Shown one piece after another: positions 1,387-15,918 of a stretch of 25,864 bases of DNA. A program made the position numbers and the translations under genes. The notes beneath the pieces were generated by a model. That model was not told the DNA's origin. It searched no databases and worked only from the letters and a program-made list of their open reading frames with translations. The number at the start of each line of letters is the position of its first letter. The first letter of the stretch is position 1. The stretch is from the IMG/VR virus record IMGVR_UViG_3300011114_000563, positions 1 to 25,864 of that record. One strand, given 5' to 3'. The DNA comes from a virus.

Positions 1387-1415
1387 AGACTACACCCCCT
1401 TGTGACGGAATGCAA
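1387..1415 (-). promoter_or_regulatory. Sigma70-like promoter of the minus recombination operon
   Basis: On the minus strand, a -35 box TTGCAT (1410-1415) and a -10 box TAGTCT (1387-1392) are separated by exactly 17 nt. The -35 is preceded by CCCC, giving CCCCTTGCAT, a block shared with other promoters in this window. It overlaps the divergent plus-strand promoter at 1400-1428. Confidence 0.6.
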
Positions 1416-1428
1416 GGGGTGGCATGAT
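1400..1428 (+). promoter_or_regulatory. Candidate divergent promoter for the regulator-RusA-primase operon
   Basis: A -35 box TTGTGA (1400-1405), 17-nt spacer and -10 box CATGAT (1423-1428) lie 22 bases before the regulator ATG. Each box matches consensus at four of six positions, so it is weak alone. Its -35 is preceded by CCCC, as at the minus-strand promoters. The arms CCCCTTG (1396-1402) and CAAGGGG (1413-1419) form a 7-bp inverted repeat covering both -35 regions, a natural place for one regulator to control both directions. Confidence 0.45.
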
Positions 1429-1450
1429 GTCACCATTCCTAGGAGGCAAA

Positions 1451-1804
1451 ATGACCCTGAACGAGTGGCTGGAACGAAATTGCTTGACGCACGAAGAGTT
1501 CGCTGATATGTGCGGTTGCACTCGTTCGGCGGTAACCCGGTGGGTCTTGGGTGCTCGACTGCCGCACCCCAAGTGGCTGAAGGTAATCCACCGCAAAACC
1601 AAAGGTCAAGTCACGATGTTCCGTCAGGGGCAGAACGACCGTGAGCGAGCGTACATTTTGCTCTACACACGGGGGTTTACCGTAGAAGCTGCGGCGAAAA
1701 GGCTGCGTATTCACCGCAACACACTTTCCAAGTTTTTCAGAGGGCAGGCTCAGACGCCGCCCGAAATCGTGTCACGTATATACAAATTAGCGGGGTTGGA
1801 ATGA
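1451..1804 (+). CDS. Double helix-turn-helix DNA-binding regulator
   Basis: The start chosen is ATG 1451, five bases after a perfect AGGAGG (1441-1446); an in-frame ATG at 1424 lies upstream of that site and within the -10 region. The 117-aa product contains two candidate helix-turn-helix units. An XRE/Cro-like one spans about residues 14-35 (EEFADMCGCTRSAVTRWVLG). A second spans about 72-95 (FTVEAAAKRLRIHRNTLSKF). No dimerisation or peptidase domain is visible. It is the first gene of the plus operon and overlaps rusA by the four bases ATGA. It is the only clear transcription-factor candidate in the window, so it may act on the shared promoter motifs, starting with the inverted repeat at 1396-1419. 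That link is inference. Confidence 0.75.
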   Translation: MTLNEWLERNCLTHEEFADMCGCTRSAVTRWVLGARLPHPKWLKVIHRKTKGQVTMFRQGQNDRERAYILLYTRGFTVEAAAKRLRIHRNTLSKFFRGQAQTPPEIVSRIYKLAGLE

Positions 1805-5098: not shown

Positions 5099-6464
5099 GC
5101 TCCATCCCCTCCAGTTCTTTTGTGACGGCTTCGACTACGTTGTCCCACGGCGCAATCATATTGTCGCGTGAGAAAATCTTAATGCTCGGATACCACGCGC
5201 TCATGTCGCCATCCTTGTTGCCCCAATACCAGAGCTTGTTGGCATCCATCAGTAGCACCTTACAACCCAAGGCCCCGGCCAGATGCACGGTCGAGCTACT
5301 CACGGCAACGATGACATCGCAGAGCGAGCAAAGCGCAGCGAGTCCCTCAAAGTCTTTCACCAAGTCCACGCCCGTCGTCACGATGTTCGTACCATGCGCT
5401 CGGTTGAATTCCTCCACGGCATCTCGGCTGCTGCCATATTGCAGGTTCAAAATCTGATACTCATCCTTCAAGAAAGGCAGCATCTCTTGCAGCTTGACCG
5501 ACTTATGCGGCCCGATCTTGATGGCGCTCGACGCCCATGAGATGCCGACCGTTAACTTGTCCTTGGTGAACCCGGTCTCTGCGCGGTACTTCTCCACGAG
5601 CTCCGGGTCTGCCTTTAGATACTTGCGGGCAACGTGTACGTGAATGTCCTTCAGCTCGTGGATAAAGCACCGGCCCACGCTCGCAAACGGAATGTGCGAG
5701 TCATGCAGATCAGACGGGACTTTCTCGAGATGCGAGATAAACGTGACCTCTGGCATCGACCGGTTAAAGATCGTCACCAATCGTGGGTCTACCATGGCAG
5801 TTACGCGGTCGGCGTTCTTGCGAATTGCCGGGAGCATGGAAGCGTAAATAATCTGATCGCCAATCCCCTGCTCGCCCCATACCAGCACAGACTTCTGCTC
5901 GGCCCCTAGATTCCATTGCGGCTTGTTACTTTGTAGCGGCCTGCTCTTAAACCGCTCGCTATTCCACCGCCTTTCATATAGGGGCCAGCCCGTCTTAAAA
6001 TCATTTCGTTGCAAGGCAAGCAGCCCCAGAATCCAATTTGAATTCGCGTTACTCGGGTCAATTTCATTCGCCTTCTCAAAGTCCTTCTGCGCGGCATCCC
6101 AACGGCGCATCTCCCAATTGCATGCACCACGCTGAACAAGTGCATGGCCGTACTTGGGATTGATCTCTAGCGCCTTCGTAAAGTCCTCAATCGCAGAGTC
6201 GTACTTTTGCAGTTCGCCCTTCACAATGCCCCGGTTTACAAAGTCATCGGCATCTAATTTGCCCCGGCGTTCTGCGGCATCGTAATACCGCTCGGCCTCG
6301 ACAAAGTTGCGCTCAATCTGCAAAAGCCGCGCTTTAGCCCGGTAGGGAATAATTTCCTTCGGCGCGAGGGAGATTGCGTAGTTACATAAATCCATCGCCT
6401 CGCCGTACTTCCCGGCTTGAAACGCTGCCTCTAACCTTTTAATAGCTTTTGCGTACTTGCTCAT
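5082..6464 (-). CDS. TPR repeat protein with GT-B-like glycosyltransferase domain
   Basis: The product is 460 aa from ATG 6464, which overlaps the upstream stop as ATGA; an in-frame ATG at 6488 would add 8 residues. The first roughly 170 residues are tetratricopeptide repeats (AIEDFTKALEINPKYGHALV and similar units, at least four). A glycosyltransferase-9/heptosyltransferase-like part follows, with VLVWGEQGIGDQIIYASMLP near its start and VSSSTVHLAGALGCKVLLM near its end. TPR fusions of this type transfer sugars, often to lipopolysaccharide or proteins. It is the largest gene of the minus operon and follows two DxD-type glycosyltransferases, so the three probably act on one glycan. Donor and acceptor cannot be read from the sequence. 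Confidence 0.8.
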   Translation of the reverse strand: MSKYAKAIKRLEAAFQAGKYGEAMDLCNYAISLAPKEIIPYRAKARLLQIERNFVEAERYYDAAERRGKLDADDFVNRGIVKGELQKYDSAIEDFTKALEINPKYGHALVQRGACNWEMRRWDAAQKDFEKANEIDPSNANSNWILGLLALQRNDFKTGWPLYERRWNSERFKSRPLQSNKPQWNLGAEQKSVLVWGEQGIGDQIIYASMLPAIRKNADRVTAMVDPRLVTIFNRSMPEVTFISHLEKVPSDLHDSHIPFASVGRCFIHELKDIHVHVARKYLKADPELVEKYRAETGFTKDKLTVGISWASSAIKIGPHKSVKLQEMLPFLKDEYQILNLQYGSSRDAVEEFNRAHGTNIVTTGVDLVKDFEGLAALCSLCDVIVAVSSSTVHLAGALGCKVLLMDANKLWYWGNKDGDMSAWYPSIKIFSRDNMIAPWDNVVEAVTKELEGMEHDRQH

Positions 6465-7132
6465 ATTGTTGCCGCTACTGCCATCCATTCGCGCCCGTAC
6501 TCCACCTCAGTCCAATCTTTAAACCATGGACCGCCTCGCGTCATGTGTACGCCAATCGGGTTCGGGCATTGATCTCGGGTGTACCAACCTTCTAGATAGT
6601 TATACGCAATCGGCAAGTGTCCGATTACATCGTCGGTCAGCCACTCAAACCTGTGAAGATACGCGGGTGTGGCGACGTTGACCAGTTCTGGCGTGAGCCG
6701 CTTAACTTGTTCATGCTCACAGTTGATGAACATGAAACTCGACCAGTTTTTGCGGGGGTAGTTGTGCTGAGGTTGGTTATTCATTTTGACCGTTTCGGTC
6801 GGCCTGTAATCGTGCGGTACTACCAAGCACGCTTTTGCCCCATGGGCGTAGTCAAGCAAAGTCGCAATGTCCCCCCGGAAAAGAAAATCGCAATCGCAAA
6901 ACAAGGCCCAGCCGGAATACCCCGCGAGATATGGAGTCAGAAACCGCGTGAGGCTGAACTCCGTAGACGCGAGCGCATCGACCGGACGCCAATAAATGCC
7001 CTGTTCGCGCAGCTCGCTCTGCTTTATCGGGACAATCTCTAACGGGATAGATGAGTGCAGTTTGAGCGAGTGAGCGCATACCTGATAGGCAACGTCCTCG
7101 CGGCTATCCCACCCAACAAACACTCTAAGCAT
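6461..7132 (-). CDS. Glycosyltransferase (GT-A fold, DxD motif)
   Basis: This 223-aa protein opens with MLRVFVGWDSREDVAYQVCA, typical of short GT8-like glycosyltransferases of phages and marine bacteria. The metal-binding DxD motif is D80-C81-D82 in ALFCDCDFLF. Downstream, SSFMFINCEH and a C-terminal GVHMTRGGPW segment supply the usual acceptor-side histidine. No signal peptide or membrane segment is present, so it should act in the cytoplasm. The ATG at 7132 overlaps the end of the previous gene by 8 nt and follows GGAGG. The family call is good; the sugar and acceptor are unknown. Confidence 0.8.
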   Translation of the reverse strand: MLRVFVGWDSREDVAYQVCAHSLKLHSSIPLEIVPIKQSELREQGIYWRPVDALASTEFSLTRFLTPYLAGYSGWALFCDCDFLFRGDIATLLDYAHGAKACLVVPHDYRPTETVKMNNQPQHNYPRKNWSSFMFINCEHEQVKRLTPELVNVATPAYLHRFEWLTDDVIGHLPIAYNYLEGWYTRDQCPNPIGVHMTRGGPWFKDWTEVEYGREWMAVAATI

Positions 7133-7796
7133 TTAAGAAAGCCTCCTTACGGGCGGGGCCTTTGTAGTGCAGGATGTACGGCACGTAGCCCTCGGTCATC
7201 CGGTCTGGCAGGCAGGCGTAATCCATCTCGTGTATCTCGCCCACCAGTTCAGGGTAGAGCATGTGTGAGTACACTTTGAGCGCCTCCTGATCGCCATACC
7301 ATTGCTTGAAGTTGGCGTTCATAAAGCCCATCAGGATCGCAAGCCCCTTCCATGCGTGATAGTTCTTCGTGATCGTCGCGCAGCCCAAGTACGGATATAA
7401 CGTGCCCAAGGGGATGCCATGGTATTGCTTGAACACCCCGCCCCGCTGCCCACCGTTGAACCCTACATCACGGTCAAATGAGCGACGGCAGAACACGATC
7501 TCCCGGTCATCCAGAATCGCAGCCGGATTGACGGGCAACATAAAAAGCATATCGGTGTCGATATACATCGCAGGGCGCATAATCTTCGCCTCCGCAAATG
7601 CACGGGTGCGCCAGTACATAATCTGCTTAACGTCGCCTTGGGAAATCTTACGCTCCGAGACGCCGGGCACTTCCGGCGTGGCATCGTCGGTGCACATAAT
7701 GACTTCAGCCTCCGGCATCACGGCCTTCAGCGAAGCCACCATCTTAGTCGGGAACGTAATGTCCTCGCCTACATGAAAGAACACAAACAAACTCAT
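7125..7796 (-). CDS. Second glycosyltransferase-like protein (GT-A fold, DxD motif)
   Basis: This 223-aa protein starts with the strand MSLFVFFHVGEDI. The DxD motif is D80-T81-D82 within AMYIDTDMLF. A glycine- and aromatic-rich middle follows, and the C-terminus LHYKGPARKEAF resembles the H..G.KPW end of GT8 enzymes. It has exactly the length of its downstream neighbour but low apparent sequence identity, so the pair could be old duplicates or a matched two-step system. The start at 7796 overlaps the upstream stop as ATGA with GGAGG in front. It lacks signal or membrane segments. Glycosyltransferase activity is inferred from motif and context. Confidence 0.7.
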   Translation of the reverse strand: MSLFVFFHVGEDITFPTKMVASLKAVMPEAEVIMCTDDATPEVPGVSERKISQGDVKQIMYWRTRAFAEAKIMRPAMYIDTDMLFMLPVNPAAILDDREIVFCRRSFDRDVGFNGGQRGGVFKQYHGIPLGTLYPYLGCATITKNYHAWKGLAILMGFMNANFKQWYGDQEALKVYSHMLYPELVGEIHEMDYACLPDRMTEGYVPYILHYKGPARKEAFLNA

Positions 7797-8814: not shown

Positions 8815-9020
8815 TCTGCACCGTAATAGCGCAACACCAACGTGAACGCATCAACGTGCTTTTGCAGTTCGTCAATGTCGTCCTGCTTCTCCATGTGAAA
8901 GATCGCAAGCGTCCCGCCTGCCTTGCGGCGCTTCAAGTCCGCTTTGAGACTCTTAAGAGTGTCCTTCAAGTCCTCGCGGACAAGCGCGTTCATGCCCTCG
9001 ACGCAAAGATCGACTCTCAC
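8811..9020 (-). CDS. Small hypothetical protein
   Basis: The start chosen is GTG 9020, which overlaps the upstream stop (GTGA) and follows a GGGAGG site with a 5-nt spacer; the open frame extends further but without a ribosome site. The 69-aa product is mostly helical and charged (REDLKDTLKSLKADLKRRKAGG), then reads TLAIFHMEKQDDIDELQKHV and ends in VLRYYGAE. No family is recognised. It forms part of the run of overlapping small genes that precede the methyltransferase. Confidence 0.6.
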   Translation of the reverse strand: MRVDLCVEGMNALVREDLKDTLKSLKADLKRRKAGGTLAIFHMEKQDDIDELQKHVDAFTLVLRYYGAE

Positions 9021-9199
9021 CAGAACCTCCCGAGCGCGTAGCCCGCTATAAAGACAACAAGGCAAAGCACAATCTCGACCACAAACATCGCATCCAACTG
9101 CTTTTCGTTTTCCAGTTTCATCTGGTCAATCTCAAACTTGAGATCAAGAATCTCGCGGTTCAAACGGTCTTGTGCGTATTCGTATTCGTACTTATTCAC
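9017..9199 (-). CDS. Small coiled-coil protein with C-terminal membrane segment
   Basis: The start chosen is GTG 9199, eight bases after GGAGGG; a longer GTG frame from 9262 lacks a site. The 60-aa product has an N-terminal heptad-like helix (RLNREILDLKFEIDQMKLEN). One strongly hydrophobic segment follows, about residues 38-58 (FVVEIVLCLVVFIAGYALG), ending in RFW. This is a tail-anchored layout with the coiled coil probably in the cytoplasm. No lysis motif (holin, spanin or signal-arrest endolysin) can be identified, and its place in a non-lysis operon argues against that. The function is unknown. Confidence 0.6.
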   Translation of the reverse strand: MNKYEYEYAQDRLNREILDLKFEIDQMKLENEKQLDAMFVVEIVLCLVVFIAGYALGRFW

Positions 9200-9289
9200 C
9201 AGTAATTCCCTCCAGTTCTGCGGCGACTGCACGCCCAGTTCGGCGGCGGTACATGTCGCCACTCTCGGTTGATGTCAGCCTTCCATCTT

Positions 9290-9466
9290 TTAATTAGAGT
9301 CCTTAGCCAGTTCATCTGGGTCAGTCCTCCCTAATTCCATTTCGAGAAAGCGTATTTCTCTTTGCTTTTGAACGATCTGCTCCCAGAGCTCTTCCACGCG
9401 AGTTTTTGGGCGGGGGCCAGCGGCCAGTCGTCCATCGGGCAGTTCGTCGGGCGTCTTCGATTGCAT
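9290..9466 (-). CDS. Small helical protein nested in overlap with the upstream Cys protein gene
   Basis: This 58-aa frame begins MQSKTPDELPDGRLAAGPRP. It continues with a charged helix (RVEELWEQIVQKQREIRF) and ends DPDELAKDSN. The ATG (9464-9466) is seven bases after GGAG (in TCTGGAGTT). The helical heptad-like sequence and the ribosome site support a real gene. It shares 146 bases with the 3' part of the gene at 9321-9671 in another frame, which is unusual and suggests the tail of that protein is under little constraint. No family is recognised. Confidence 0.6.
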   Translation of the reverse strand: MQSKTPDELPDGRLAAGPRPKTRVEELWEQIVQKQREIRFLEMELGRTDPDELAKDSN

Positions 9467-9671
9467 TGCATAACTCCAGAATCAGTGAATTTGCTACGCG
9501 CTCGCGATCCCGCTGCCGTAGCCGGTGCAAGTACTCCAGCACCTTCTCGGGCGGGACCTTCTTGCGCTCTGGCCGTCTCAGCGCGTGGCAGCGACCGAAG
9601 TGCTCCACGAGACAGAGCGGGCAAAAGCGGTCAACCTTCGTCGGTCTCTTCTTCGATGACTTCGCATTCAT
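9321..9671 (-). CDS. Small Cys/His-containing protein
   Basis: The product is 116 aa from ATG 9671. A zinc-knuckle-like motif near the N-terminus (FCPLCLVEHFGRCHALRRPE) offers three Cys and two His. A basic helix follows (VLEYLHRLRQRDRERVANSL). From about residue 80 the sequence turns into a low-quality, Pro/Arg-rich tail where a second gene (9290-9466) is read in another frame; that tail may be a by-product of the overlap. The start lies inside the end of the preceding Cys protein gene, fitting coupled translation. No family name can be given. Zinc binding is inferred. Confidence 0.55.
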   Translation of the reverse strand: MNAKSSKKRPTKVDRFCPLCLVEHFGRCHALRRPERKKVPPEKVLEYLHRLRQRDRERVANSLILELCNAIEDARRTARWTTGRWPPPKNSRGRALGADRSKAKRNTLSRNGIRED

Positions 9672-9825
9672 AGATGTCTTCGCACAGGCAGTGGGGGCAG
9701 AGGTCAATCGTGAATCGTTCGTTTGTCACGCATCCCCAGTACTCCACGCGCTCGTGATAGCGGCCCTCTTTCGGCTCCGCGAAGACTTCCTTGCAATCGC
9801 TGCATCGGTAGTAGGTGTGAATCAT
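9631..9825 (-). CDS. Small zinc-ribbon protein
   Basis: This 64-aa protein has CSDC near residue 8 and CPHC near residue 43, separated by a beta-like stretch, and ends in a very acidic tail (ECEVIEEETDEG). Two CxxC knuckles in a short protein are the signature of a zinc ribbon. The ATG at 9825 follows GAGGA with a 7-nt spacer. It is the first gene of the long minus operon, 41 bases after the -10 box of the promoter at 9866-9894. It could bind nucleic acid or a host protein; nothing decides which. Confidence 0.7.
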   Translation of the reverse strand: MIHTYYRCSDCKEVFAEPKEGRYHERVEYWGCVTNERFTIDLCPHCLCEDIYECEVIEEETDEG

Positions 9826-9865
9826 TTTGGGTTCCTCGTTTAAGGTTCAAGCGGGTTGTGCAGTG

Positions 9866-9894
9866 AGAGTACGCCGCCCCGAAGAGCGGCGCAA
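9866..9894 (-). promoter_or_regulatory. Promoter of the 13-gene minus operon
   Basis: On the minus strand, -35 TTGCGC (9889-9894) and -10 TACTCT (9866-9871) have a 17-nt spacer, and CCCC precedes the -35. The spacer itself is a GC-rich dyad (GCCGC...GCGGC). An 11-bp site CAACCCGCTTG (9848-9858) lies just downstream, near the expected transcription start, and matches the near-palindrome found at four other promoters. Confidence 0.55.
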
Positions 9895-9901
9895 GGGGTT
9901 C

Positions 9902-10285
9902 TCAGTGCGATTGGTTACGCTGGGCCTCCTCGGCCCACTCAAAGTCCCACTGGTACATCTGGCTCTGGTCCTCCAAGCGCATATCCCGCGCCTCGCAGAT
10001 GGCGTCCTCGACCATCTCGACCACATCGGACCGAAAGCCACCCACGGTCCACACCTTGACCTCTTCGGGCGGAACGTCCTGCCGCCAGTCGTAGATCGTG
10101 GCCACAAAATCCCGGCCATCCTCGTCCGTGAAAACGATCACCCACTCGGCCTGCGTCTTCTCGCCGTCGCCGGGGAGGGGGTTGCCAAAGGCATTGACCA
10201 GCTCGCTGTAGCTCGTGAGCACGATGCCACGCTTGCTGGAGCCGTTAATCAAGCTGAAATCCATCATCGGTTCGTACTTCTTCAT
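9902..10285 (-). CDS. Conserved phage protein of unknown function
   Basis: The 127-aa protein begins MKKYEPMMDFSLINGSSKRG and contains YSELVNAFGNP, AEWVIVFTDEDGRDFVATIY and DWRQDVPPEEVKVWTVGGF. This series of beta strands with a VATIYDW core recurs in small phage proteins of several families, but I cannot name one with confidence. The C-terminus is acidic. The ATG at 10285 follows CGGAGA with 8 nt. It is a single-gene unit with its own strong promoter (10321-10349), which points to high early expression, as for host take-over or anti-defence proteins. That role is inference only. Confidence 0.65.
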   Translation of the reverse strand: MKKYEPMMDFSLINGSSKRGIVLTSYSELVNAFGNPLPGDGEKTQAEWVIVFTDEDGRDFVATIYDWRQDVPPEEVKVWTVGGFRSDVVEMVEDAICEARDMRLEDQSQMYQWDFEWAEEAQRNQSH

Positions 10286-10320
10286 GGTTGCAATCTCCGT
10301 AAAAGTTTGCAGACGAGGAG

Positions 10321-10349
10321 AATATAAACAAGCCGCTTGAGCATTGCAA
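10321..10349 (-). promoter_or_regulatory. Strong sigma70 promoter with palindrome in the spacer
   Basis: On the minus strand, -35 TTGCAA (10344-10349), spacer 17, and -10 TATATT (10321-10326), with CCCC in front of the -35. The spacer contains CAAGCGGCTTG (10329-10339), a perfect 11-bp palindrome around a central base, two bases from the -10. Binding there would block RNA polymerase directly. Confidence 0.72.
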
Positions 10350-10386
10350 GGGGCAAAAAGAAAGGCGGGGTTTGAAGTCCCCCGCC
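10350..10386 (-). terminator. Rho-independent terminator of the 10394-10666 gene
   Basis: On the minus strand the stem GGCGGGG/CCCCGCC (10380-10386 with 10364-10370) has a 9-nt loop and is followed by TTTCTTTTTG. It lies eight bases after the stop of the upstream gene and directly before the next promoter, so it insulates two single-gene units. Confidence 0.85.
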
Positions 10387-10393
10387 CGGTTGA

Positions 10394-10666
10394 TCAGGCC
10401 AATGCCTTTTCAAGTCTGGCTTTTAGTTCATCAGCTACGCTTTTAGGTATGGCGCAGTCAGGACTCCAATCACCGCCTGAGCGCTCATACAAATCGTTGA
10501 TCACCTTAATCCATCCGTTGACCGTGGCCTCGTAATAACTACGCTTTGAGTTAGGCCGCGTGGCGTACAGTCCATAGAAATTTCGGACTCGGCTACTGTC
10601 GAGTTGCAGTACTTGATAAATACGACGCTCGACTGACAGTTCGATCATCTTAGGTTCGTCGCCCAT
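10394..10666 (-). CDS. Small hypothetical phage protein
   Basis: This 90-aa protein has ELSVERRIYQVLQLDSSRVR, a central SYYEATVNGWIKVINDLYER and a C-terminal helix ADELKARLEKALA. It is soluble and mixed alpha/beta by eye; no family is recognised. The ATG at 10666 follows AGGAG with 8 nt. It forms a monocistronic unit between its own consensus promoter (10728-10755) and a clear terminator (10350-10386), so it is probably well expressed early in infection. Confidence 0.65.
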   Translation of the reverse strand: MGDEPKMIELSVERRIYQVLQLDSSRVRNFYGLYATRPNSKRSYYEATVNGWIKVINDLYERSGGDWSPDCAIPKSVADELKARLEKALA

Positions 10667-10727
10667 GTGCTCATCTCCTAGTTTGTATTTGAAAGAACCC
10701 GATAGCCGCGAGTGCTACCGTAAGTTC

Positions 10728-10755
10728 ATTATACACAAGCCGCTTGAGCAGTCAA
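10728..10755 (-). promoter_or_regulatory. Near-consensus sigma70 promoter with palindrome in the spacer
   Basis: On the minus strand, -35 TTGACT (10750-10755), spacer 16, and a perfect -10 TATAAT (10728-10733). The spacer has CAAGCGGCTTG (10736-10746), the same palindrome, also two bases from the -10, as at 10329-10339. Unlike its relatives it lacks the CCCC block. Its leader to the next ATG is long, about 60 bases. Confidence 0.75.
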
Positions 10756-10764
10756 GAATATCGA

Positions 10765-10776
10765 TGGTCGCGACCA
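10765..10776. promoter_or_regulatory. 12-bp perfect palindrome, candidate operator
   Basis: TGGTCGCGACCA is a perfect dyad lying ten bases upstream of the -35 box of the minus promoter and about 120 bases before the divergent plus gene at 10896. Position and symmetry suit a regulator site, but there is no second copy nearby. Confidence 0.35.
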
Positions 10777-10800
10777 CCATGCGGTCATTTCCTTTATCTG

Positions 10801-10839
10801 TCCACAGGATATCCACAGCTTGTTGTTTTTATGCAACAA
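10801..10839. repeat. TCCACAG direct repeats and TTGTTG/CAACAA dyad
   Basis: TCCACAG occurs at 10801-10807 and 10812-10818, 11 bases apart, or about one helical turn; the flanks resemble degenerate DnaA boxes (TTATCCACA). Immediately after, TTGTTG (10820-10825) and CAACAA (10834-10839) form an inverted repeat with an 8-nt loop. The stretch could be an initiator or regulator site; the DnaA idea is weak. Confidence 0.3.
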
Positions 10840-10860
10840 AATTTTGATCAGCCGTCATCG

Positions 10861-10889
10861 TTGCAAGCTGACGGGCGGAGCGATACGCT
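10861..10889 (+). promoter_or_regulatory. Weak candidate promoter for the DUF5856-like gene
   Basis: -35 TTGCAA (10861-10866), spacer 17, -10 TACGCT (10884-10889). The -10 is poor, matching three of six. The expected transcription start coincides with the ATG at 10896, which fits the lack of a ribosome site close to that start. Arms GCAAGC (10863-10868) and GCTTGC (10887-10892) also form a dyad across it. Confidence 0.3.
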
Positions 10890-10895
10890 TGCCCC

Positions 10896-11258
10896 ATGAA
10901 AGCCGCAGATTTCATCGGACTCCTATTTCTCGGTCGGGATGTTGCGCACAGCGTTCATCTCAACAGTCGCTCGTACAGCGCCCACAAGGCGCTCCAGAAG
11001 CTATACGAGGGCCTGCCGGGGCTCACGGACGACTTTGCAGAGGCCTACATGGGTCGGCACGGTCTCATCGGCCCGGTGACGCTAATGAGCGCCGAAAAGA
11101 ACCGGGACATCGTCGAGTTTTTGGAAGACCAGCTCGACCAGATCGAGAAAGCCCGGTACGAAATTTGCGACCGGGAAGAGACGGCGCTTCAGAATCTCAT
11201 CGATGAAATCGTCGCCCTGTATCTCTCTACGCTCTACAAGCTTCGCTTCTTGTCTTGA
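10896..11258 (+). CDS. DUF5856-like helical phage protein
   Basis: This 120-aa protein reads MKAADFIGLLFLGRDVAHSVHLNSR, then YSAHKALQKLYEGLPGLTDDFAEAYMGRHG. It ends in a helix with EETALQNLIDEIVALYLSTLYKL. This pattern matches DUF5856, a family of ferritin-like four-helix proteins found in many phages; conserved His and Glu residues (H18, H21, H30, E38, E49) are in ferritin-like places. The function is unknown. The start is the only ATG after an in-frame stop and has no good ribosome site (GGAG is 15 bases away), suggesting leaderless or weak translation. It is one of few plus-strand genes in the left half and is followed by a TTGA-coupled small membrane protein. Confidence 0.75.
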   Translation: MKAADFIGLLFLGRDVAHSVHLNSRSYSAHKALQKLYEGLPGLTDDFAEAYMGRHGLIGPVTLMSAEKNRDIVEFLEDQLDQIEKARYEICDREETALQNLIDEIVALYLSTLYKLRFLS

Positions 11259-11386
11259 ACGATAGAGAGACACAGGACTATTACGATAAAAAGGTCCGCA
11301 GGGCCGAAGAGACTTTGATGCTGTTTGCGAAGGTCGTCTTCGTGACCGCCGTGGCCTCGGTGCTCTACGCGCTCATTGCGCGGTAA
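11255..11386 (+). CDS. 43-aa small membrane protein
   Basis: A TTG start overlaps the upstream stop (TTGA, 11255-11258). The product has a charged N-terminus (NDRETQDYYDKKVRRAEE). One membrane segment of about 19 residues follows (LFAKVVFVTAVASVLYALI) and it ends in AR. The sharp charged-then-hydrophobic layout and coupling support a real gene despite its size and non-ATG start. It overlaps the end of the convergent methyltransferase gene by 14 bases. The function is unknown. Confidence 0.5.
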   Translation: MNDRETQDYYDKKVRRAEETLMLFAKVVFVTAVASVLYALIAR

Positions 11387-12002
11387 ATTGCAGCAACGAC
11401 CCCGGCATCAGAATCGCCGTCTTACCATTCCACCGGGGATAAATCAGCGCGTAGCCTGTCAGGTGCTGCATGAGCAGCATCGCGTTGCCGACGCCCTTTT
11501 CGACGCCCTCGAAATCGTCCAGAACCAATACCGTCTTGTTGTGCATTAGTTCTTGTATCAACCTAATATCTTTCGGGCTCAATCGACCGTCGATATAAAA
11601 CAAGTCCACCTTAACTTTTTGCTTCAACAAGTCCTCAAACATATCGGTGGATGACTTCTTCGGATACTGCACAATCTTGCCGCCCGTTACTTCTGGCAGC
11701 TTGATGTCGTTGGACACATCGCAGGTATAAATCGTCCCGCCCTCGTCCATCGAATGCGCTATCGCCATGGTGCTCCGGCCAATGAACGTACCCACCTCCG
11801 CGACCGTTTTCGGTCCAAAGTGGAAGACCACATCCTGCAAGTCCTCTACGTCACGCTTATCCAGCGAGCCGGTGTTGTAATCGGCCTCTTCGCGCAGCTC
11901 GTCCAGCTTCCTGAACAAGTCGCCGAGCCCACGCCCTCGGCCTTCAATCTGCTTCCAGATGATTTCTGATAGCGTTTTTCGGTTGATGTTGATCGGATTC
12001 AT
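11373..12002 (-). CDS. Class I SAM-dependent methyltransferase (Methyltransf_24-like)
   Basis: The 209-aa protein has motif I VAEVGTFIGRSTMAIA (residues 67-82) and an acidic SAM-ribose residue in YTCDVSND (D95). The catalytic-side motif LFYIDGR (134-140) and the strand VLVLDDFEGV (158-167) follow. The D-x-D/DDFEG pattern is that of small O-methyltransferases and CmcI-like enzymes. About 60 N-terminal residues precede the Rossmann core. It is the last gene of a coupled minus operon beginning at 12566, starts at 12002 with ATGA overlap and follows AGAGAGGA. Its substrate is unknown; it might modify the same glycan as the cassette at 5082-8814, but it lies in a different operon. Confidence 0.75.
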   Translation of the reverse strand: MNPININRKTLSEIIWKQIEGRGRGLGDLFRKLDELREEADYNTGSLDKRDVEDLQDVVFHFGPKTVAEVGTFIGRSTMAIAHSMDEGGTIYTCDVSNDIKLPEVTGGKIVQYPKKSSTDMFEDLLKQKVKVDLFYIDGRLSPKDIRLIQELMHNKTVLVLDDFEGVEKGVGNAMLLMQHLTGYALIYPRWNGKTAILMPGSLLQFTAQ

Positions 12003-12142
12003 TTTCGTGTCCTCTCTCTGGCTTGTTGAATTTTGCGGGCTTGCCGCAGCTTAGAAAGCGTCCTGCGGTCCTCTGCGAGGACCTGTTTGGTAGTCTGGGT
12101 GCGCCTCGGGTCAGGCGGCGGAATCAGCTCAGGGACGCTCAT
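11999..12142 (-). CDS. 47-aa basic protein
   Basis: This short frame reads MSVPELIPPPDPRRTQTTKQ followed by a basic helix (LAEDRRTLSKLRQARKIQQ) and ends in RTRK. It shares ATGA overlaps with both neighbours (start at 12142, stop at 11999). Such exact double coupling, rare by chance, is the main evidence that it is real. It is strongly basic (net charge clearly positive) and might bind nucleic acid. No family is recognised. Confidence 0.55.
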   Translation of the reverse strand: MSVPELIPPPDPRRTQTTKQVLAEDRRTLSKLRQARKIQQARERTRK

Positions 12143-12345
12143 GCGACCCCCAATCGGGCCTCAATGGCCGCGTCCAGTTCGTCTGAAGGAAGAGCTGAGA
12201 GCCGCTCGTAAGCCATGGTGATGGCCATGTCGAGGCGGACCGATTCAGGCAGTCCAATCGAATTTGGCTGATTTAGCAGACGCAAAGCCTCGGCGGCGAC
12301 CGCATCGACCAGCGCATCGACCTCCCGGTCCGTGACGCGGCTCAC
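12139..12345 (-). CDS. Small helical protein, GTG start
   Basis: This 68-aa protein (REVDALVDAVAAEALRLLN...LDMAITMAYERLSALPSDEL) is almost entirely helical and slightly acidic. The GTG at 12345 overlaps the previous stop as GTGA and follows GGGAGG. No family is recognised. The helix pattern resembles small phage proteins that form dimers, but no function can be assigned. Confidence 0.62.
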   Translation of the reverse strand: MSRVTDREVDALVDAVAAEALRLLNQPNSIGLPESVRLDMAITMAYERLSALPSDELDAAIEARLGVA

Positions 12346-12566
12346 GGCGCACCTCCCGTGGCCTTCTGGATGGCGCTCTGGGCGACCCGGTAAGCGTCAT
12401 ACAGGTCTGGCCGGGAGAACGGCAGATAGGGCACCTCGCGGGCTTTGCCAGAACGTAGCAGTTCGATGGCGTCGAGGCGGTTGATGGGGAAGTAGCGCAT
12501 CTGGGTCGTTGAAACGCGATACCAGCGGCTGTTGGCAGGGGACATGGCAAGTTGAAGCTGTTTCAT
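12342..12566 (-). CDS. Small hypothetical protein, first gene of the methyltransferase operon
   Basis: The start at ATG 12566 follows GAGG with 8 nt, within an AAACGAGG leader shared with other early genes. An upstream in-frame ATG is possible but has no ribosome site and would read through the leader. The 74-aa product contains SRWYRVSTTQMRYFPINRLD, then AIELLRSGKAREVPYLPFSR and a short helix. No family is recognised. It is driven by the promoter at 12601-12629. Confidence 0.6.
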   Translation of the reverse strand: MKQLQLAMSPANSRWYRVSTTQMRYFPINRLDAIELLRSGKAREVPYLPFSRPDLYDAYRVAQSAIQKATGGAP

Positions 12567-12600
12567 GGTTTGGGCCTCGTTTGGGTTAAGGGTCGAGCGC

Positions 12601-12629
12601 ATTACAGCACAAGCGGATTGCGCATGCAA
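12601..12629 (-). promoter_or_regulatory. Promoter of the 11373-12566 operon
   Basis: On the minus strand, -35 TTGCAT (12624-12629), spacer 17, -10 TGTAAT (12601-12606), preceded by CCCCC. The spacer includes CAATCCGCTTG (12610-12620), a one-pair variant of the palindrome at 10329-10339 and 10736-10746, three bases from the -10. Confidence 0.65.
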
Positions 12630-12939
12630 GGGGGTGGAATAACTTCTTATTTTTTCTTACCCCTGTTTCGGGCTGTTTTTGAAAATTGCTTTGTAGATCA
12701 AGACTTTGGGAATTTCTTCAATTATTTAATTATTTCTTATGATAGAAGCGAAGGGGGAGGGGTGTCAGGGAAAGTAGACAAGAGAGAGTATAGAAAGAAA
12801 TATAATAATAAAAAATAATATATATATATACTCTACTCCTTGTAGATCAATGGCTTACGAAGGGGTGTGGTAAAAATGAGACATAATTAGTTCAATTAGT
12901 TCAAAAGGAAGTATTCGCGGCGCTTGTGACGACCAGCAG
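12630..12939. other. AT-rich non-coding region before the small terminase gene
   Basis: No credible gene is seen. The stretch holds a long purine-rich run (about 12740-12800), a TATAAT at 12801-12806 and an alternating TA tract (about 12819-12831). The 11-bp direct repeat TTGTAGATCAA occurs at 12691-12701 and 12840-12850, and AATTAGTTC is repeated in tandem (12885-12902). AT-richness, repeats and position beside the small terminase gene suit a replication origin or packaging site, but neither is shown. Confidence 0.4.
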
Positions 12940-13482
12940 ATGGTTGTAGATTTGCCACAGGCAACGAGCCGTCGAGAGGGACTCGTGGAACAAACTGAAG
13001 TCGCAGAAAAACCGGTCCAGAAGCGCGGGCGAGGTCGTCCGAAAGTGGCACCGGAAGAGTCCAAACGCGAACTGTCCGTACAACAAGTAAAAGACACTCG
13101 CGCACGCAAATCGCACCCCGACCCGATACTGGCGCGCTCAGTGGCCACGATGGCGCTCGCAGGATTCCCGCGCGAACAGGTGTGCGCCGCGCTGAAAATC
13201 AGCCCGGAAACACTGGCCGAGCATTACCACGAGGAAATGACCCATGGCCGGACCAACATCATGGCCGAGGTCGTCGGCAGCTTAGCCCAGCGGGCCATCG
13301 CAGGCAGCGACACCGCCGCGATCTGGCTGACGAAAACGCGGCTGGGCTGGTCCGACCGGCAACAGGTGGACATGAATGCCAACGTGGAAGTCGTCCACCA
13401 TCGGGGTGAGCTCGTGTCCGAATTGGCCGGGCTAATCCAAAAAGGCATCACAATCGACGCCGAGCCCGAGCCCGAAAAGTAG
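12940..13482 (+). CDS. Small terminase subunit-like DNA-binding protein
   Basis: This 180-aa protein has a basic, disordered start (KPVQKRGRGRPKVAPEES, an AT-hook-like GRP). A helix-turn-helix follows around residues 66-100 (ATMALAGFPREQVCAALKI...LAEHY). A helical segment with AIAGSDTAAIWLTKTRLGW and the tail SDRQQVDMNANVEVV come next. The HTH plus a WLTKTRLGW core is typical of phage terminase small subunits, which bind the packaging site and recruit the large subunit. The ATG at 12940 has no clear ribosome site; an in-frame GTG at 12985 follows GAGAGGGA and may be the real start (165 aa). Unusually, the large subunit lies 2.8 kb away, beyond a reverse-strand cassette. Confidence 0.68.
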   Translation: MVVDLPQATSRREGLVEQTEVAEKPVQKRGRGRPKVAPEESKRELSVQQVKDTRARKSHPDPILARSVATMALAGFPREQVCAALKISPETLAEHYHEEMTHGRTNIMAEVVGSLAQRAIAGSDTAAIWLTKTRLGWSDRQQVDMNANVEVVHHRGELVSELAGLIQKGITIDAEPEPEK

Positions 13483-13508
13483 GTCCAAACGATTAGGTCC
13501 AATCGATT
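13481..13508 (+). repeat. 14-bp tandem repeat after the small terminase gene
   Basis: Two copies of AGGTCCAAACGATT / AGGTCCAATCGATT abut (13481-13494, 13495-13508) with one mismatch, starting at the terminase stop codon. A short GCGAGCGT tandem lies at about 13588-13606. The rest of 13509-13677 shows no gene. Placement next to the small terminase gene makes a packaging-site role possible. Confidence 0.45.
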
Positions 13509-13659
13509 AGCGGGATTTAATCAAACGGCCACGGGGCAAAATCCGACCGGCCCCGAGCGAACGGGGGTCGAAAACAGGGGGCTGACGGCGAGCGTGCGAG
13601 CGTGCGCCCTCCAGCTTCAAGCGGCCAGCCGGACCCGTGGCGGGTGCGCGACCCGCGCG

Positions 13660-13681
13660 AAAACTAGTCGCGACCGACTAG
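13660..13681 (-). terminator. Terminator of the minus cassette between the terminase genes
   Basis: CTAGTCG (13664-13670) and CGACTAG (13675-13681) form a perfect 7-bp stem with a 4-nt loop, followed on the minus strand by TTTT. The stem includes the stop codon of the gene at 13678-13893. Further GC-rich dyads (CGGGT/ACCCG) lie just beyond. Confidence 0.55.
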
Positions 13682-13893
13682 GGGCGGACTAGGGAATTAC
13701 AGTGGACCAGCCCACGAAATTGGCCGGACATATCGGCTACGTGGCAATGTCCCATTGTCCCGGCTGGCGGGCACCCGTGCGGGCGGACTACGCGGACCAG
13801 CTCGCCAGCTTTTAGGGTCGTTTTCGGGTCGTAACGGTCAATTGGTACCGGCTGGAAAATGTACCGGCCACCAGTGCGGACACGTGCGGGCAT
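13678..13893 (-). CDS. Small beta-rich hypothetical protein
   Basis: The product is 71 aa from ATG 13893, which is 8 bases after GGAG; the open frame to 13920 starts at a TTG without such a site. The sequence reads TGGRYIFQPVPIDRYDPKTT, then GELVRVVRPHGCPPAGTMGH and CHVADMSGQFRGLVHCNSLV. The alternating beta pattern with a CPPxxTMGHCHV core is found in small proteins of many proteobacterial phages; I cannot name the family. It is the last gene of the minus cassette lying between the terminase genes. Confidence 0.65.
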   Translation of the reverse strand: MPARVRTGGRYIFQPVPIDRYDPKTTLKAGELVRVVRPHGCPPAGTMGHCHVADMSGQFRGLVHCNSLVRP

Positions 13894-13971
13894 GTGATGT
13901 GCTCCAGAGTATCGGCGCAAGATTGCACCCCATAGGGCGCCCCATGGGCGGGCACCCTAGAAGCTGCAAGC

Positions 13972-14685
13972 TTACTGGCGCGCGATTGCGTCAGCTTTAC
14001 GCTTGCCGGTCCCGTGAGCGTGGAAACCGATAATTACGCCACCACGATCTTGACGCGCGCACAGCTTGCATGTCGCACAGCTCACGCGGTCCGATACTTC
14101 AGCCGGGCATGCGTACACTTTGCGACCGGCTGGCGTCCGGAGCTTGCGTGGTGCGTCCGCCGGTAGAACGACGACGACCGGGCCCGCGCCAGTGTCCGCC
14201 AATTGGTCCGCGTGCTCTAGATTGTTTCCGGACAGGTTAACAGTGAACCCGCCCGCGTTTGCCGCGCGGATTGCGTCCGCGTTACCGGGCACGCTCGGGT
14301 CGTAGTGCGTATACGTGAACCCATTCCGTCCGCGATTCGCCGCTACCAGCTCGGCAAGCTTTTCGGCGTCAATATGCGTTCGGTCCACTGAGGGCAGATC
14401 GCCGGACACGTTATGTCGCCACAATTGGCCACGCGGTAACGCGCGCACCTTGTCGCACAGCGTGGACCAATCCGCGCCACGCTCGCCGGCTGTTACTTTT
14501 TTCCAGTGGATAGCCTGCGGACCGTAGTCCGCATAACAGCCGCCCGCATTCGCGCGATTAAGCGGACATGCGACCGGGCAGAATTTCTCCGTGCTCGTGG
14601 TGGCGGGAATTGGTCCGATTTTTTGGTTCGATGACACGGCCACAAAATGCACGAAATATCGGATGGAAATATTTTGAGTTTGCAT
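13972..14685 (-). CDS. Cys-rich gp88/DUF7227-like conserved protein
   Basis: The ATG at 14685 follows a 28-base leader shared with the neighbouring gene. The 237-aa product contains GPIPATTSTEKFCPVACPL, GGCYADYGPQAIHWKKV, LPRGQLWRHNVSGDLP, RGRNGFTYTHY and GFTVNLSGNNLEHADQLAD. It ends with VSCATCKLCARQDRGGVIIG. This is a conserved protein of proteobacterial phages and prophages resembling gene-88-type and DUF7227 proteins; the names are from memory. Clustered cysteines at both ends (CPVACPL, CATCKLC) suggest a metal or Fe-S centre, and the GDLP and NLSxNN motifs suggest an enzyme fold. No activity is established. It is convergent to terS and divergent from the late operon. Confidence 0.72.
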   Translation of the reverse strand: MQTQNISIRYFVHFVAVSSNQKIGPIPATTSTEKFCPVACPLNRANAGGCYADYGPQAIHWKKVTAGERGADWSTLCDKVRALPRGQLWRHNVSGDLPSVDRTHIDAEKLAELVAANRGRNGFTYTHYDPSVPGNADAIRAANAGGFTVNLSGNNLEHADQLADTGAGPVVVVLPADAPRKLRTPAGRKVYACPAEVSDRVSCATCKLCARQDRGGVIIGFHAHGTGKRKADAIARQ

Positions 14686-14931
14686 CGTTTGGGGTTCCGT
14701 AGTTTGGGGGTTAGGTTTAGTTCGCATCAAAGCTTGCGACAAGCTCGGCGCGCATTGTGTCAAGCTTTTCCGCGATGTCACACAATTCGCGTGATTTATC
14801 ACGTGAGCTTACTGAACCGGTTTTCTCCGCGTGCTCTAACAGCTCAGCCGCTTGCACGCGCAGATATAAGGCCGCTTTTCTCAATTCCATTTCAGTGAGT
14901 TTCGTTTGCATCGTTTGGGGTTCCGTAGTTT
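14678..14931 (-). repeat. 28-bp direct repeat forming the leader and start of two genes
   Basis: An identical 28-bp segment occurs at 14678-14705 and 14904-14931. On the minus strand each copy contains ACGGAACCCCAAACG followed by the ATG and the next two codons of its gene (MQT). So the two adjacent genes share the same ribosome site, start and first residues, probably from duplication or gene replacement downstream of a fixed leader. Confidence 0.85.
14717..14911 (-). CDS. Small helical protein sharing its leader with the gp88-like gene
   Basis: The product is 64 aa from ATG 14911 (MQTKLTEMELRKAALYLRVQ, then AAELLEHAEKTGS and a second helix RELCDIAEKLDTMRAELVAS). It is all helical and acidic, with no recognised family. 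The start is chosen because the 28-bp leader repeat ends in this ATG at both genes; the open frame extends 30 bases further without support. It is the first gene after the promoter at 14957-14986. Confidence 0.62.
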   Translation of the reverse strand: MQTKLTEMELRKAALYLRVQAAELLEHAEKTGSVSSRDKSRELCDIAEKLDTMRAELVASFDAN

Positions 14932-14956
14932 TCGCGGACACAATGCCCGCCTGAGA

Positions 14957-14986
14957 ATTATCGCCGGTTTTTTACATAGTGCGCAA
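14957..14986 (-). promoter_or_regulatory. Promoter candidate of the minus cassette
   Basis: On the minus strand, -35 TTGCGC (14981-14986), spacer 18, -10 GATAAT (14957-14962). The near-palindrome CAATCCGCTTG (14984-14994) overlaps the -35. The CCCCTTG block is replaced by CCCTAAAC, so this is the most divergent member of the promoter set. An alternative -10 at 14973-14980 would restore the usual palindrome spacing. Confidence 0.45.
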
Positions 14987-15250
14987 GCGGATTGTTTAGG
15001 GCATGTCCCGGTGGCGTGGCTGGCCGCTCGTGGCGCTGGCTGGCTGGCTGGCGCGCGGATTGTTTACCGGCTGGCGTCCGGCTGGCTGGCGGGCGGGCGG
15101 GTCGCTGGCTGGCTGGCGCTGGCATGCGTGGCGTGCGCTGGCGTGGCGTCCGGGTCCCTGTCCGGCCAATCGGGCGGACGCGAACGACCACAGGCGGGCG
15201 GGCGGGCACGCGATTTGACGCGGGGTGGGTAGGGTCCCATCTGCGGTATT
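14987..15250. repeat. GC-rich GGCT/GGCG low-complexity region
   Basis: A 260-base stretch is dominated by GGCT and GGCG units (for example 15035-15053, 15080-15100 and 15105-15120). Several GGGCGGGCGGG runs could fold as G-quadruplexes. The 12-mer GCGGATTGTTTA occurs at 14987-14998 and 15055-15066. Frames open on both strands only because of repeat composition, and none has ribosome sites or plausible protein sequence, so I see no gene from 14987 to 15309. Confidence 0.6.
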
Positions 15251-15288
15251 CACTCCCCGCACCCAGCGCAATTTTAGGGACCCCTACC
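15228..15288. repeat. Long-arm inverted repeat upstream of the late operon
   Basis: GGTAGGGTCCC (15228-15238) is complementary to GGGACCCCTACC (15277-15288) apart from one extra C, enclosing 38 bases. The right arm lies just upstream of the extended -10 promoter at 15295-15303, so the structure may regulate late transcription or mark a processing site. Confidence 0.5.
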
Positions 15289-15294
15289 GGCTTG

Positions 15295-15303
15295 TGCTAC
15301 TAT
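15295..15303 (+). promoter_or_regulatory. Extended -10 promoter candidate for the head operon
   Basis: TGCTACTAT is an extended -10 element (TGN followed by TACTAT at 15298-15303). The -35 region at the proper spacing (TAGGGA, 15275-15280) is weak, as is usual for extended -10 promoters. Six bases separate it from ATG 15310, implying a transcript starting at or next to the start codon. Confidence 0.4.
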
Positions 15304-15309
15304 GCGCAA

Positions 15310-15918
15310 ATGCTACACACAGGCGCGGGGCCCCTCCCCCGGCACACTTACTGCTACGTAGAGCCCCACACCTTCGGCAACGCGGATTGGCTACGTGTCG
15401 CGTGGTTTGGACTAGTCAGCCACCCCGGACGCACATGGGGGTGTCATGTGATGCTGGAATGCGGAGCCGTCTACCGCAATGTCCCGCTGCACCGACTCGC
15501 GCACCAAACCACAGGGACCCCTTGGGACCCCGCCGACGCACAGACTTGGGATTGCTACGGCATTCACTTCAGCACGACGGAGTATCCGTTTCTGGAAGGG
15601 ACCCGCATACGCACCCGGCTACGCTCCAAGCAGGAGCACCTAGGGACGTACATGTTTACCGTGATCCCGATGCTGGATGGATTCAGCATGGAGCCGGAGC
15701 AGAGCAAGGAGTTTTACTTCATCAAACTGGACAACGGGCGCTTTACAGCGCAACCTACGAACCATTTGCTGGTGCAGGACAAGTCGTTCACCACCGGCAG
15801 CGAATGGCCTAAATTAAAGCGTCAAACTGATGTATGGAGTGTTGACCATGGCAACGAAGTCGAAGGTAAACGCAGCGGGCAATTACACGAAGCCCGAGAT
15901 GCGCAAAAAGCTTTTTAA
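15310..15918 (+). CDS. Conserved phage protein at the head of the late operon
   Basis: The 202-aa product from ATG 15310 reads HTYCYVEPHTFGNADWLRVA, then WFGLVSHPGRTWGCHVMLEC, WDCYGIHFSTTEYPFLEGT, PEQSKEFYFIKLDNGRFTAQP and LKRQTDVWSVD. Similar proteins appear near terminase genes in environmental phages, without known function. No ribosome site precedes the ATG, and a promoter -10 ends six bases upstream, so a leaderless message is likely. A longer open frame from 14992 is an artefact of the GC-rich repeat. The last 23 codons overlap the next gene in another frame, and that tail may be unconserved. Confidence 0.65.
   Translation: MLHTGAGPLPRHTYCYVEPHTFGNADWLRVAWFGLVSHPGRTWGCHVMLECGAVYRNVPLHRLAHQTTGTPWDPADAQTWDCYGIHFSTTEYPFLEGTRIRTRLRSKQEHLGTYMFTVIPMLDGFSMEPEQSKEFYFIKLDNGRFTAQPTNHLLVQDKSFTTGSEWPKLKRQTDVWSVDHGNEVEGKRSGQLHEARDAQKAF

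What the first reader, a model, noticed from the sequence alone, without database searches (positions are those of the whole stretch)
9848..14994. Shared 11-bp near-palindrome CAANCSGCTTG in five minus-strand promoter regions
CAAGCGGCTTG is a perfect dyad and lies two bases from the -10 at 10329-10339 and 10736-10746. Variants CAATCCGCTTG (12610-12620, 14984-14994) and CAACCCGCTTG (9848-9858) lie at the remaining minus promoters. Placement in the spacer or at the expected start suits a repressor. The same element at five promoters of different operons, often at nearly fixed spacing, suggests one undescribed phage regulator.
Basis: partly seen in the sequence, partly recalled or inferred. Interest (0 to 1): 0.75.

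Follow-up and report, generated by a model that had tools for sequence, protein, structure and literature searches.

The report
Shared repressor site tagging phage promoters
A short palindromic DNA element sits between the two promoter boxes in front of many unrelated small genes in an uncultured group of phages, which points to one phage-encoded switch, probably a double helix-turn-helix protein, that controls a swappable set of accessory genes.

Summary
All five sites exist; the relaxed palindrome CAANCSGNTTG occurs 5 times in the window against 0.31 expected. A sixth, divergent copy (15284-15294) lies at the plus-strand late promoter. In 26 of 26 TerL-related loci with at least 6.5 kb upstream of TerL, a matrix match lies in a promoter-like sequence. 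56 of 83 distinct contexts sit in a good sigma-70-like promoter versus about 6.5% of control positions. 80 site-gene pairs, all opposite to TerL, lead into 28 unrelated gene families. Anchored on genes instead of the motif, 40 of 67 distinct upstream regions hold it, unevenly by family. Best reading: a 17-bp operator of a phage repressor that shuts off a swappable accessory-gene island. Best candidate: the 117-aa protein at 1451-1804, two Cro/C1-type HTH domains in one chain, the only HTH_3 protein in 9 of 10 records, window included. Half-site polarity (31 versus 11, p=0.003) fits a two-domain chain. Binding and the sign of regulation are inferred. Closest known: the L5/TipsytheTRex two-domain repressor and Aca repressors; it is a member of neither.

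The parts
9848..9858 (-). operator copy CAACCCGCTTG at the expected transcription start of promoter TTGCGC(9894-9889)-17-TACTCT(9871-9866)
10329..10339 (-). operator copy CAAGCGGCTTG in the spacer of promoter TTGCAA(10349-10344)-17-TATATT(10326-10321)
10736..10746 (-). operator copy CAAGCGGCTTG in the spacer of promoter TTGACT(10755-10750)-16-TATAAT(10733-10728)
12610..12620 (-). operator copy CAATCCGCTTG in the spacer of promoter TTGCAT(12629-12624)-17-TGTAAT(12606-12601); not listed by the scan
14984..14994 (-). operator copy CAATCCGCTTG upstream of the 64-aa ORF and DUF7227/GP88 gene; promoter boxes not clear
15284..15294 (+). sixth, divergent operator copy CTACCGGCTTG just upstream of TACTAT (15298-15303) and ATG 15310 of the late operon
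1451..1804 (+). 117-aa tandem double Cro/C1-type HTH protein, candidate regulator
1395..1434 (.). conserved control element of the HTH gene, covering two overlapping divergent promoters: plus TTGTGA(1400-1405)-17-CATGAT, minus TTGCAT(1415-1410)-17-TAGTCT; no CAANCSGNTTG
9631..9825 (-). 64-aa ORF downstream of the 9848 site
9902..10285 (-). 127-aa ORF downstream of the 10329 site
10394..10666 (-). 90-aa ORF downstream of the 10736 site
12342..12566 (-). 74-aa ORF downstream of the 12610 site
13972..14911 (-). 64-aa ORF and DUF7227/GP88-like gene downstream of the 14984 site

Best explanation
CAANCSGNTTG, with outer RC...GY, is a 17-bp pseudo-palindromic operator. It is embedded mainly in the -35/-10 spacer, sometimes at the start site, of host sigma-70-type promoters that drive a variable island of small accessory genes transcribed opposite to the structural genes. 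A phage-encoded repressor made from its own operator-free promoter (the 117-aa tandem double-HTH protein beside RusA and primase) binds the site as a single-chain pseudo-dimer, occludes RNA polymerase and shuts the island off in trans after an early burst. A weaker, divergent copy at the late promoter would let the same protein touch late genes. Shown by comparison: the element, its promoter placement, its recurrence, the variety of downstream genes, and the single conserved double-HTH protein. Inferred: binding, repression, timing, and the identity of the binder.
For: Window excess 5 vs 0.31. 56 of 83 distinct contexts in promoters of at least 8/12 hexamer matches vs 6.5% of nearby positions and 7.7% of 452 other CAAN5TTG places. 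234 matrix hits at threshold 16 vs 2.3 for column-permuted matrices, maximum 9. 26 of 26 loci. 28 unrelated downstream families behind 80 site-gene pairs, 80 of 80 minus. Gene-anchored and motif-blind, 40 of 67 distinct upstream regions hold the exact element against 0.06% of base-shuffled ones. Two placements (spacer, start site) both suit steric repression. 2 of 2 outgroup phages without a detectable HTH homologue have no matrix hit at 16 or above in 50 kb each. The double-HTH protein is the only HTH_3 protein in 9 of 10 records, window included; no RHH protein in 13 of 13; no transcription-factor family among the Pfam hits of 20 nonstructural proteins of one relative. AlphaFold: two four-helix domains 64 residues apart, pLDDT 89.7, each matching single Cro/C1 folds including P22 c2 and 434 Cro. 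Half-site polarity 31 vs 11, 27 ties, p=0.003.
Against: No binding data. The HTH gene's own promoter lacks the operator and carries a different conserved element, which could be its real target. A divergent copy at the late promoter does not fit simple early shut-off; against a matrix built only from CAANCSGNTTG sites it scores 1.6 to 11.1 in 12 loci I chose. Only 3 of 20 distinct regions upstream of GP88 and ArdC homologues hold the exact element. The polarity could reflect promoter constraints next to the -10 box. Covariation between HTH clades and site variants could not be tested with enough genomes. 10 of 27 strong sites overlap uncurated ORF calls, two of them in the conserved helicase gene. 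The host, and so any host regulator, is unknown.
Confidence: 0.57

Rival explanations
1. The element is an operator, but its binder is a different phage protein of unknown fold; the double-HTH protein regulates only its own divergent promoter through the 1395-1434 element.
For: The HTH promoter element is conserved, occurs at most once per locus and lacks the operator; several small conserved proteins of one relative match no Pfam family.
Against: No other HTH_3 or RHH protein detected; the DUF5856 protein at 10896-11258 is found in only 25 of the sequences held, one of them the outgroup RLK, and not in the L012, L022, L024 or L028 loci that carry sites.
Confidence: 0.2
2. A host transcription factor binds the element, so that the phage reads host physiology.
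For: The host is unknown and the promoters look like host sigma-70 promoters.
Against: The element follows the phage group over many gene swaps; two outgroup phages have no strong site, though their hosts may differ.
Confidence: 0.1
3. The element is part of the promoter itself (spacer or extended -10 preference, or an activator site), not a repressor operator.
For: Central spacer position and -10-proximal polarity; the late promoter boxes are weak.
Against: Several promoters are near consensus and need no activator (10736: 11 of 12); the site also occurs at the start site; dyad symmetry extends over 17 bp (where the matrix was made symmetric by including both strands).
Confidence: 0.1
4. Shared ancestry only: one promoter cassette was copied and the element is a relic without function.
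For: Some cassettes share an upstream CCGCNNNRTGGTC element and a leader hairpin; the fixed CAA and TTG are fixed by the search pattern, so they prove no constraint; two gene families have mostly lost or changed the exact element.
Against: 83 contexts that differ at more than 6 of 61 positions; 37 of 47 distinct upstream regions of seven gene families keep the exact element when found through the gene.
Confidence: 0.03

Closest known systems
Cluster A mycobacteriophage immunity repressor (L5, TipsytheTRex), PMC9283540 (passages read, part of the abstract among them)
   Same: One chain with two DNA-binding domains acts on several sites in the phage genome; its site orientation correlates with transcription, and here the half-sites show a polarity.
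   Different: [quoted passage not shown] Here: 17-bp pseudo-palindrome, a few sites per genome mostly inside promoters, two Cro/C1-type domains, no integrase found.
Aca (anti-CRISPR-associated) repressors, PMC9410906 and PMC8434428 (search listing with starts of abstracts only)
   Same: Small phage HTH proteins that repress accessory operons; inverted repeats in the promoter are recalled.
   Different: aca genes lie in the acr operon; here the candidate gene is 8-14 kb from the sites, beside RusA and primase, and many separate promoters share the site.
Lambda-type Cro/CI operators and repressors (recalled; fold matches to P22 c2 and 434 Cro)
   Same: Cro/C1 fold; operator of 17 bp with an odd centre (recalled for lambda).
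   Different: Two HTH domains in one chain instead of a homodimer; sites spread over cargo promoters and not beside the regulator gene.
Wmk of Wolbachia prophage WO, PMC12889037 (passages read)
   Same: Two Cro/C1-type HTH domains in one prophage-associated protein, proposed to act as a monomer.
   Different: 62-residue linker and further extensions; no operator named in the passages read; unrelated context.
Conserved early regulatory sequences that mark anti-defence genes in archaeal viruses, PMC11065993 (abstract and outline read)
   Same: One shared regulatory sequence marks many early accessory genes.
   Different: There archaeal viruses and a strong shared promoter; here a bacterial-type promoter with a palindromic element in its spacer.

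Membership tests
Cro/C1 (XRE, HTH_3) DNA-binding proteins | HTH_3 sequence match and Cro/C1 fold | tested here: met
   PF01381 E 1.8e-11; AlphaFold and VIA-align matches to both halves
Cro/C1 (XRE, HTH_3) DNA-binding proteins | one HTH per chain, works as a homodimer (recalled) | tested here: not met
   two HTH domains per chain; oligomeric state not tested
Cluster A mycobacteriophage immunity repressors | two DNA-binding domains in one chain | tested here: met
   predicted only; DNA contact not tested
Cluster A mycobacteriophage immunity repressors | asymmetric 13-bp site at more than twenty places including stoperators | tested here: not met
   pseudo-palindrome; 2 to 5 exact sites in each of 9 records
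Cluster A mycobacteriophage immunity repressors | temperate phage with integrase (recalled) | tested here: inconclusive
   no PF00589 in 10 of 10 and no PF00239 in 13 of 13 records, but records may be incomplete
Cluster A mycobacteriophage immunity repressors | Stoperator domain homology | tested here: inconclusive
   not noticed among the sequence matches or the fold rows; absence from lists excludes nothing
Aca repressors | HTH gene within the repressed acr-type operon | tested here: not met
   candidate gene at 1451-1804, sites at 9848-15294
Aca repressors | binds an inverted repeat in the promoter and represses it | not testable with these tools
   needs gel shift and reporter assays
sigma-70 promoters carrying an operator | -35/-10 boxes with 16-18 bp spacing around the site | tested here: met
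   56 of 83 contexts vs 6.5% control; 2 of 6 window sites in the independent scan

The most novel reading that the evidence does not exclude
A natural single-chain Cro-like repressor with two HTH domains reads a polar pseudo-palindrome built into the promoter spacer of plug-in gene cassettes across a large uncultured phage group; the operator acts as an admission tag that puts newly acquired accessory genes under the phage's early switch, so the tag can be used to find unknown host-takeover and anti-defence genes.
Probability: 0.44. Interest if true: 0.75.

Novelty: new variant of a known kind. Interest (0 to 1): 0.6.

Why it matters
Most small accessory genes of phages have no known function. 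If one operator marks the promoters of such genes, a DNA pattern alone selects candidates without protein similarity; some sites lead into ArdC-type, DUF932 and GP88 genes, families I recall as linked to anti-restriction or plasmid establishment. It would also give a natural example of a covalently joined Cro-like pair, useful for asking how operator symmetry and polarity evolve.

Tried and rejected
DUF5856/phrog_858 protein (10896-11258, named 'starvation-inducible transcriptional regulator') as binder: not universal, so set aside. Ribbon-helix-helix regulator: none in 13 of 13 records. Chance or coding motif: rejected. A recurrent weaker hit CTACCTGCTTG (matrix 14-15) lies at the end of a gene in the plus-strand block by my reading and is probably coding; not counted as an operator. 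An Rfam search of the window found nothing at gathering scores. GTGRCATSATGYCAC as a second regulon: one copy in the window. Host by prophage: 12 stretches matched a TerL pattern in genome contigs, none confirmed. HTH-clade versus site-variant covariation: clade B and C genomes too few, left open. Papers: CAAGCGGCTTG as a string occurs in 6 papers, unrelated by title and start of abstract; 0 papers hold 'tandem helix-turn-helix' with phage and repressor; none of the 4 papers listed describes this element by title and start of abstract. So 'undescribed' rests in an open-licence library only, and on the HTH protein having just one partial match (36% of it) in 50,697 phage records.

Limits of the counts: deduplication by Hamming distance, not phylogeny; the matrix was trained on the sequences it was counted on (column-permuted matrices are the control); the promoter score is a plain consensus count; ORF calls were uncurated. 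In one search the pattern fixes the outer triplets, and orientation was chosen by promoter score alone, which put the window's late site on the minus strand, against my reading. In one search the loci were picked by CTTGTGAC...TGCAA, so those letters are fixed by construction; one search prints upstream regions without that choice. Pairs were kept only if an ATG ORF of 40 aa or more with a ribosome-site-like string followed. In one search the 170-bp stretch upstream of a projected start can miss the promoter: in L022 the site (8547) lies beyond the stretch taken for the ArdC homologue.

Full report
What is there. The window is a 25,864-base viral record of an uncultured phage group: a Sak4-like annealing protein (minus strand), a 117-aa HTH protein, RusA and a primase (plus), a long stretch of mostly minus-strand genes, then a small terminase subunit, large terminase, portal and major head protein on the plus strand. 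The five reported 11-mers are exactly where stated. Written as a true palindrome, CAANCSGNTTG occurs 5 times in the window; 100 shuffles gave mean 0.31 and maximum 2.

Promoter anatomy. On the minus strand 10329 and 10736 sit in the spacers of TTGCAA-17-TATATT and TTGACT-16-TATAAT. An independent scan of 9000-15500 lists both among 6 promoter-like sites (shuffles: 3.0) and lists none of the other operator promoters. By my reading 12610 sits in TTGCAT-17-TGTAAT, 9848 covers the expected start of TTGCGC-17-TACTCT, and the promoter at 14984 is unclear. The minus promoter opposite the HTH gene (about 1387-1415) has no copy, so the element is not a general feature of minus promoters.

Relatives. 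80 TerL-related viral loci were fetched, the best 80 of 113. CAANCSGNTTG was found at 127 places in 54 of 94 sequences (80 TerL loci, 13 other loci and the window; one duplicate locus left out), which collapse to 83 distinct contexts. Of these, 56 have at least 8 of 12 matches to TTGACA/TATAAT at 16-18 bp spacing around the site; the same score is reached by 6.5% of nearby control positions and by 7.7% of 452 other CAAN5TTG places. In 47 of the 56 the -35 box begins 8 to 10 bases before the site, so the element is centred in the spacer; 51 of the 56 are on the minus strand of their locus. An iterated 19-bp matrix, made symmetric by using both strands, gives RCnCAAnCSGnTTGnGY. At threshold 16 it finds 234 places against a mean of 2.3, maximum 9, for 30 column-permuted matrices. 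All 26 loci with at least 6.5 kb upstream of TerL have at least one matrix match in such a promoter, mean 5.0 matches per locus.

Same operator, changing cargo. Requiring a promoter and an ORF of at least 40 aa with a ribosome-site-like string, 80 site-gene pairs remain in the 80 TerL loci and the window; 80 of 80 are on the minus strand and their first genes fall into 28 families without detectable similarity to one another. Ten were scanned with Pfam: DUF7007, DUF932, GP88 (two), an ArdC-type anti-restriction protein and DUF7249 were hit, four had no match. Around 0.7 to 1.3 kb upstream of TerL, DUF7227 (window), GP88, DUF932 and ArdC-type genes lie behind sites in different phages.

Gene-anchored check. 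To avoid choosing by the motif, homologues of nine cargo genes were found in the 80 loci and the window and 170 bp upstream taken. 40 of 67 distinct upstream regions hold the exact element; base-shuffled regions hold it in 0.06%. The result is uneven: 37 of 47 in seven families, 2 of 14 for GP88 and 1 of 6 for ArdC homologues. Part of the misses are regions that stop short of the promoter or variant copies such as CTAGCCGCTTG, part look like real absence. The element is thus a common but not universal property of these promoters.

A sixth site. At 15284-15294 the plus strand reads CTACCGGCTTG, followed by TACTAT and an ATG at 15310. Many relatives carry CTACCCCCTTG or similar in front of the late operon; a match lies within 1.3 kb upstream of TerL in 60 of 64 loci long enough to tell. 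Against a matrix built only from 80 CAANCSGNTTG sites, the late copies of 12 loci I chose score 1.6 to 11.1, while 0.09% of all positions reach 0 and 0.03% reach 8. They are related but weaker, and the role at the late promoter is open.

Coding test and outgroups. In six near-complete relatives 27 strong sites were found; 17 lie outside uncurated ORF calls although these cover 90.6% of the sequence. Of the 10 inside, three overlap by about half at over-extended ORF starts, three are late sites, two (G004 and G010) are in a conserved helicase gene, two are uncertain. Two phages whose TerL is 47% and 50% identical, MW202545 and Caulobacter phage RLK, have no detectable double-HTH homologue and no strong site in the 50 kb of each that was scanned; MW202545 has two plain pattern matches, both inside annotated genes, RLK none.

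Candidate regulator. The protein at 1451-1804 matches HTH_3 twice. In 9 of 10 records, window included, it is the only HTH_3 protein, always with two matches in one ORF; the tenth (G006) is a fragment that by position should end before this gene, which is inference. 80 loci with a homologue gave 43 distinct proteins. AlphaFold2 on a 27-row alignment gives pLDDT 89.7, pTM 0.72 and two four-helix domains whose helices are offset by about 64 residues. Foldseek and VIA-align match each half to single Cro/C1 domains, among them ImmR, P22 c2 and 434 Cro; no listed chain was aligned closely over both halves. No RHH protein was found in 13 of 13 records, and the Pfam hits of 20 nonstructural proteins of one relative include no transcription-factor family, only weak zinc-ribbon hits for one. 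No tyrosine or serine recombinase was found in 10 of 10 and 13 of 13 records, so lysogeny is not supported, but the records may be incomplete.

Polarity. In 69 distinct promoter sites the half nearer the -10 box is closer to CAAGC in 31, the other half in 11, with 27 ties (two-sided p=0.003). A chain of two non-identical HTH domains would give such a polarity; promoter constraints might too. In the same call the late site of the window was oriented minus by promoter score, against my reading.

Against the favoured binder. The HTH gene's own control region (1395-1434) lacks the operator and carries another element, CCCcCTTGTGACGgaaTGCAAGnGGTGGCAngATGTCACc, seen upstream of HTH genes whose proteins are under 40% identical and at most once per locus; one search gives the consensus of 23 distinct contexts, which were picked by CTTGTGAC...TGCAA. 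It contains CTTG and CAAG halves, but these coincide with -35 boxes. It may be the HTH protein's true target.

Mechanism. Inferred: host RNA polymerase fires the near-consensus promoters at once; the double-HTH protein, made from an operator-free promoter, then fills the spacer sites as a one-chain pseudo-dimer and stops the island. The structure of TipsytheTRex repressor shows that one chain with two DNA-binding domains can fill successive major grooves much like a CI dimer (PMC9283540, passages). Binding, sign and timing remain to be tested.

Standing. It works like L5-type and Aca repression but fails defining features of both (membership test). Open-library searches returned no description of this element, and the HTH protein has only one partial match in 50,697 phage records. 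I rate it a new variant of a known kind.

Noticed in passing
window 1395-1434: Conserved 40-bp control element covering two overlapping divergent promoters of the recombination and replication operons; present where the adjacent HTH protein is below 40% identical.
   Followed up: partly
window 10700-10720 (minus): Leader hairpin between the 10736 promoter and its gene; in an alignment of the window and 9 relatives 3 of 7 pairs show changes on both sides that keep pairing.
   Followed up: partly
window about 10772-10784 (minus) and relatives: A second element CCGCN{1,3}RTGGTC: 39 places in all, 19 within 150 bp upstream of an operator on the same strand, 17 of these 10-29 bp upstream; reversed-pattern control 12 places in all. 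It also precedes promoters without a strong operator (e.g. L036, L039).
   Followed up: partly
window 15298-15312: The -10-like TACTAT lies 6 bases before the ATG of the late operon, so the late message may be leaderless; many relatives keep CTAGGGTCCCAT nearby.
   Followed up: no
L183:7869-10130: TerL of record G010 is interrupted by about 1 kb at residue 149, perhaps an intron or homing element.
   Followed up: no
L060:4829 and 4874: Late operator-like copies and GGGTCCC repeats duplicated in tandem upstream of the late genes.
   Followed up: no
window 5082-7796: Three conserved minus-strand proteins: two match PHROGs of unknown function, one matches none.
   Followed up: no
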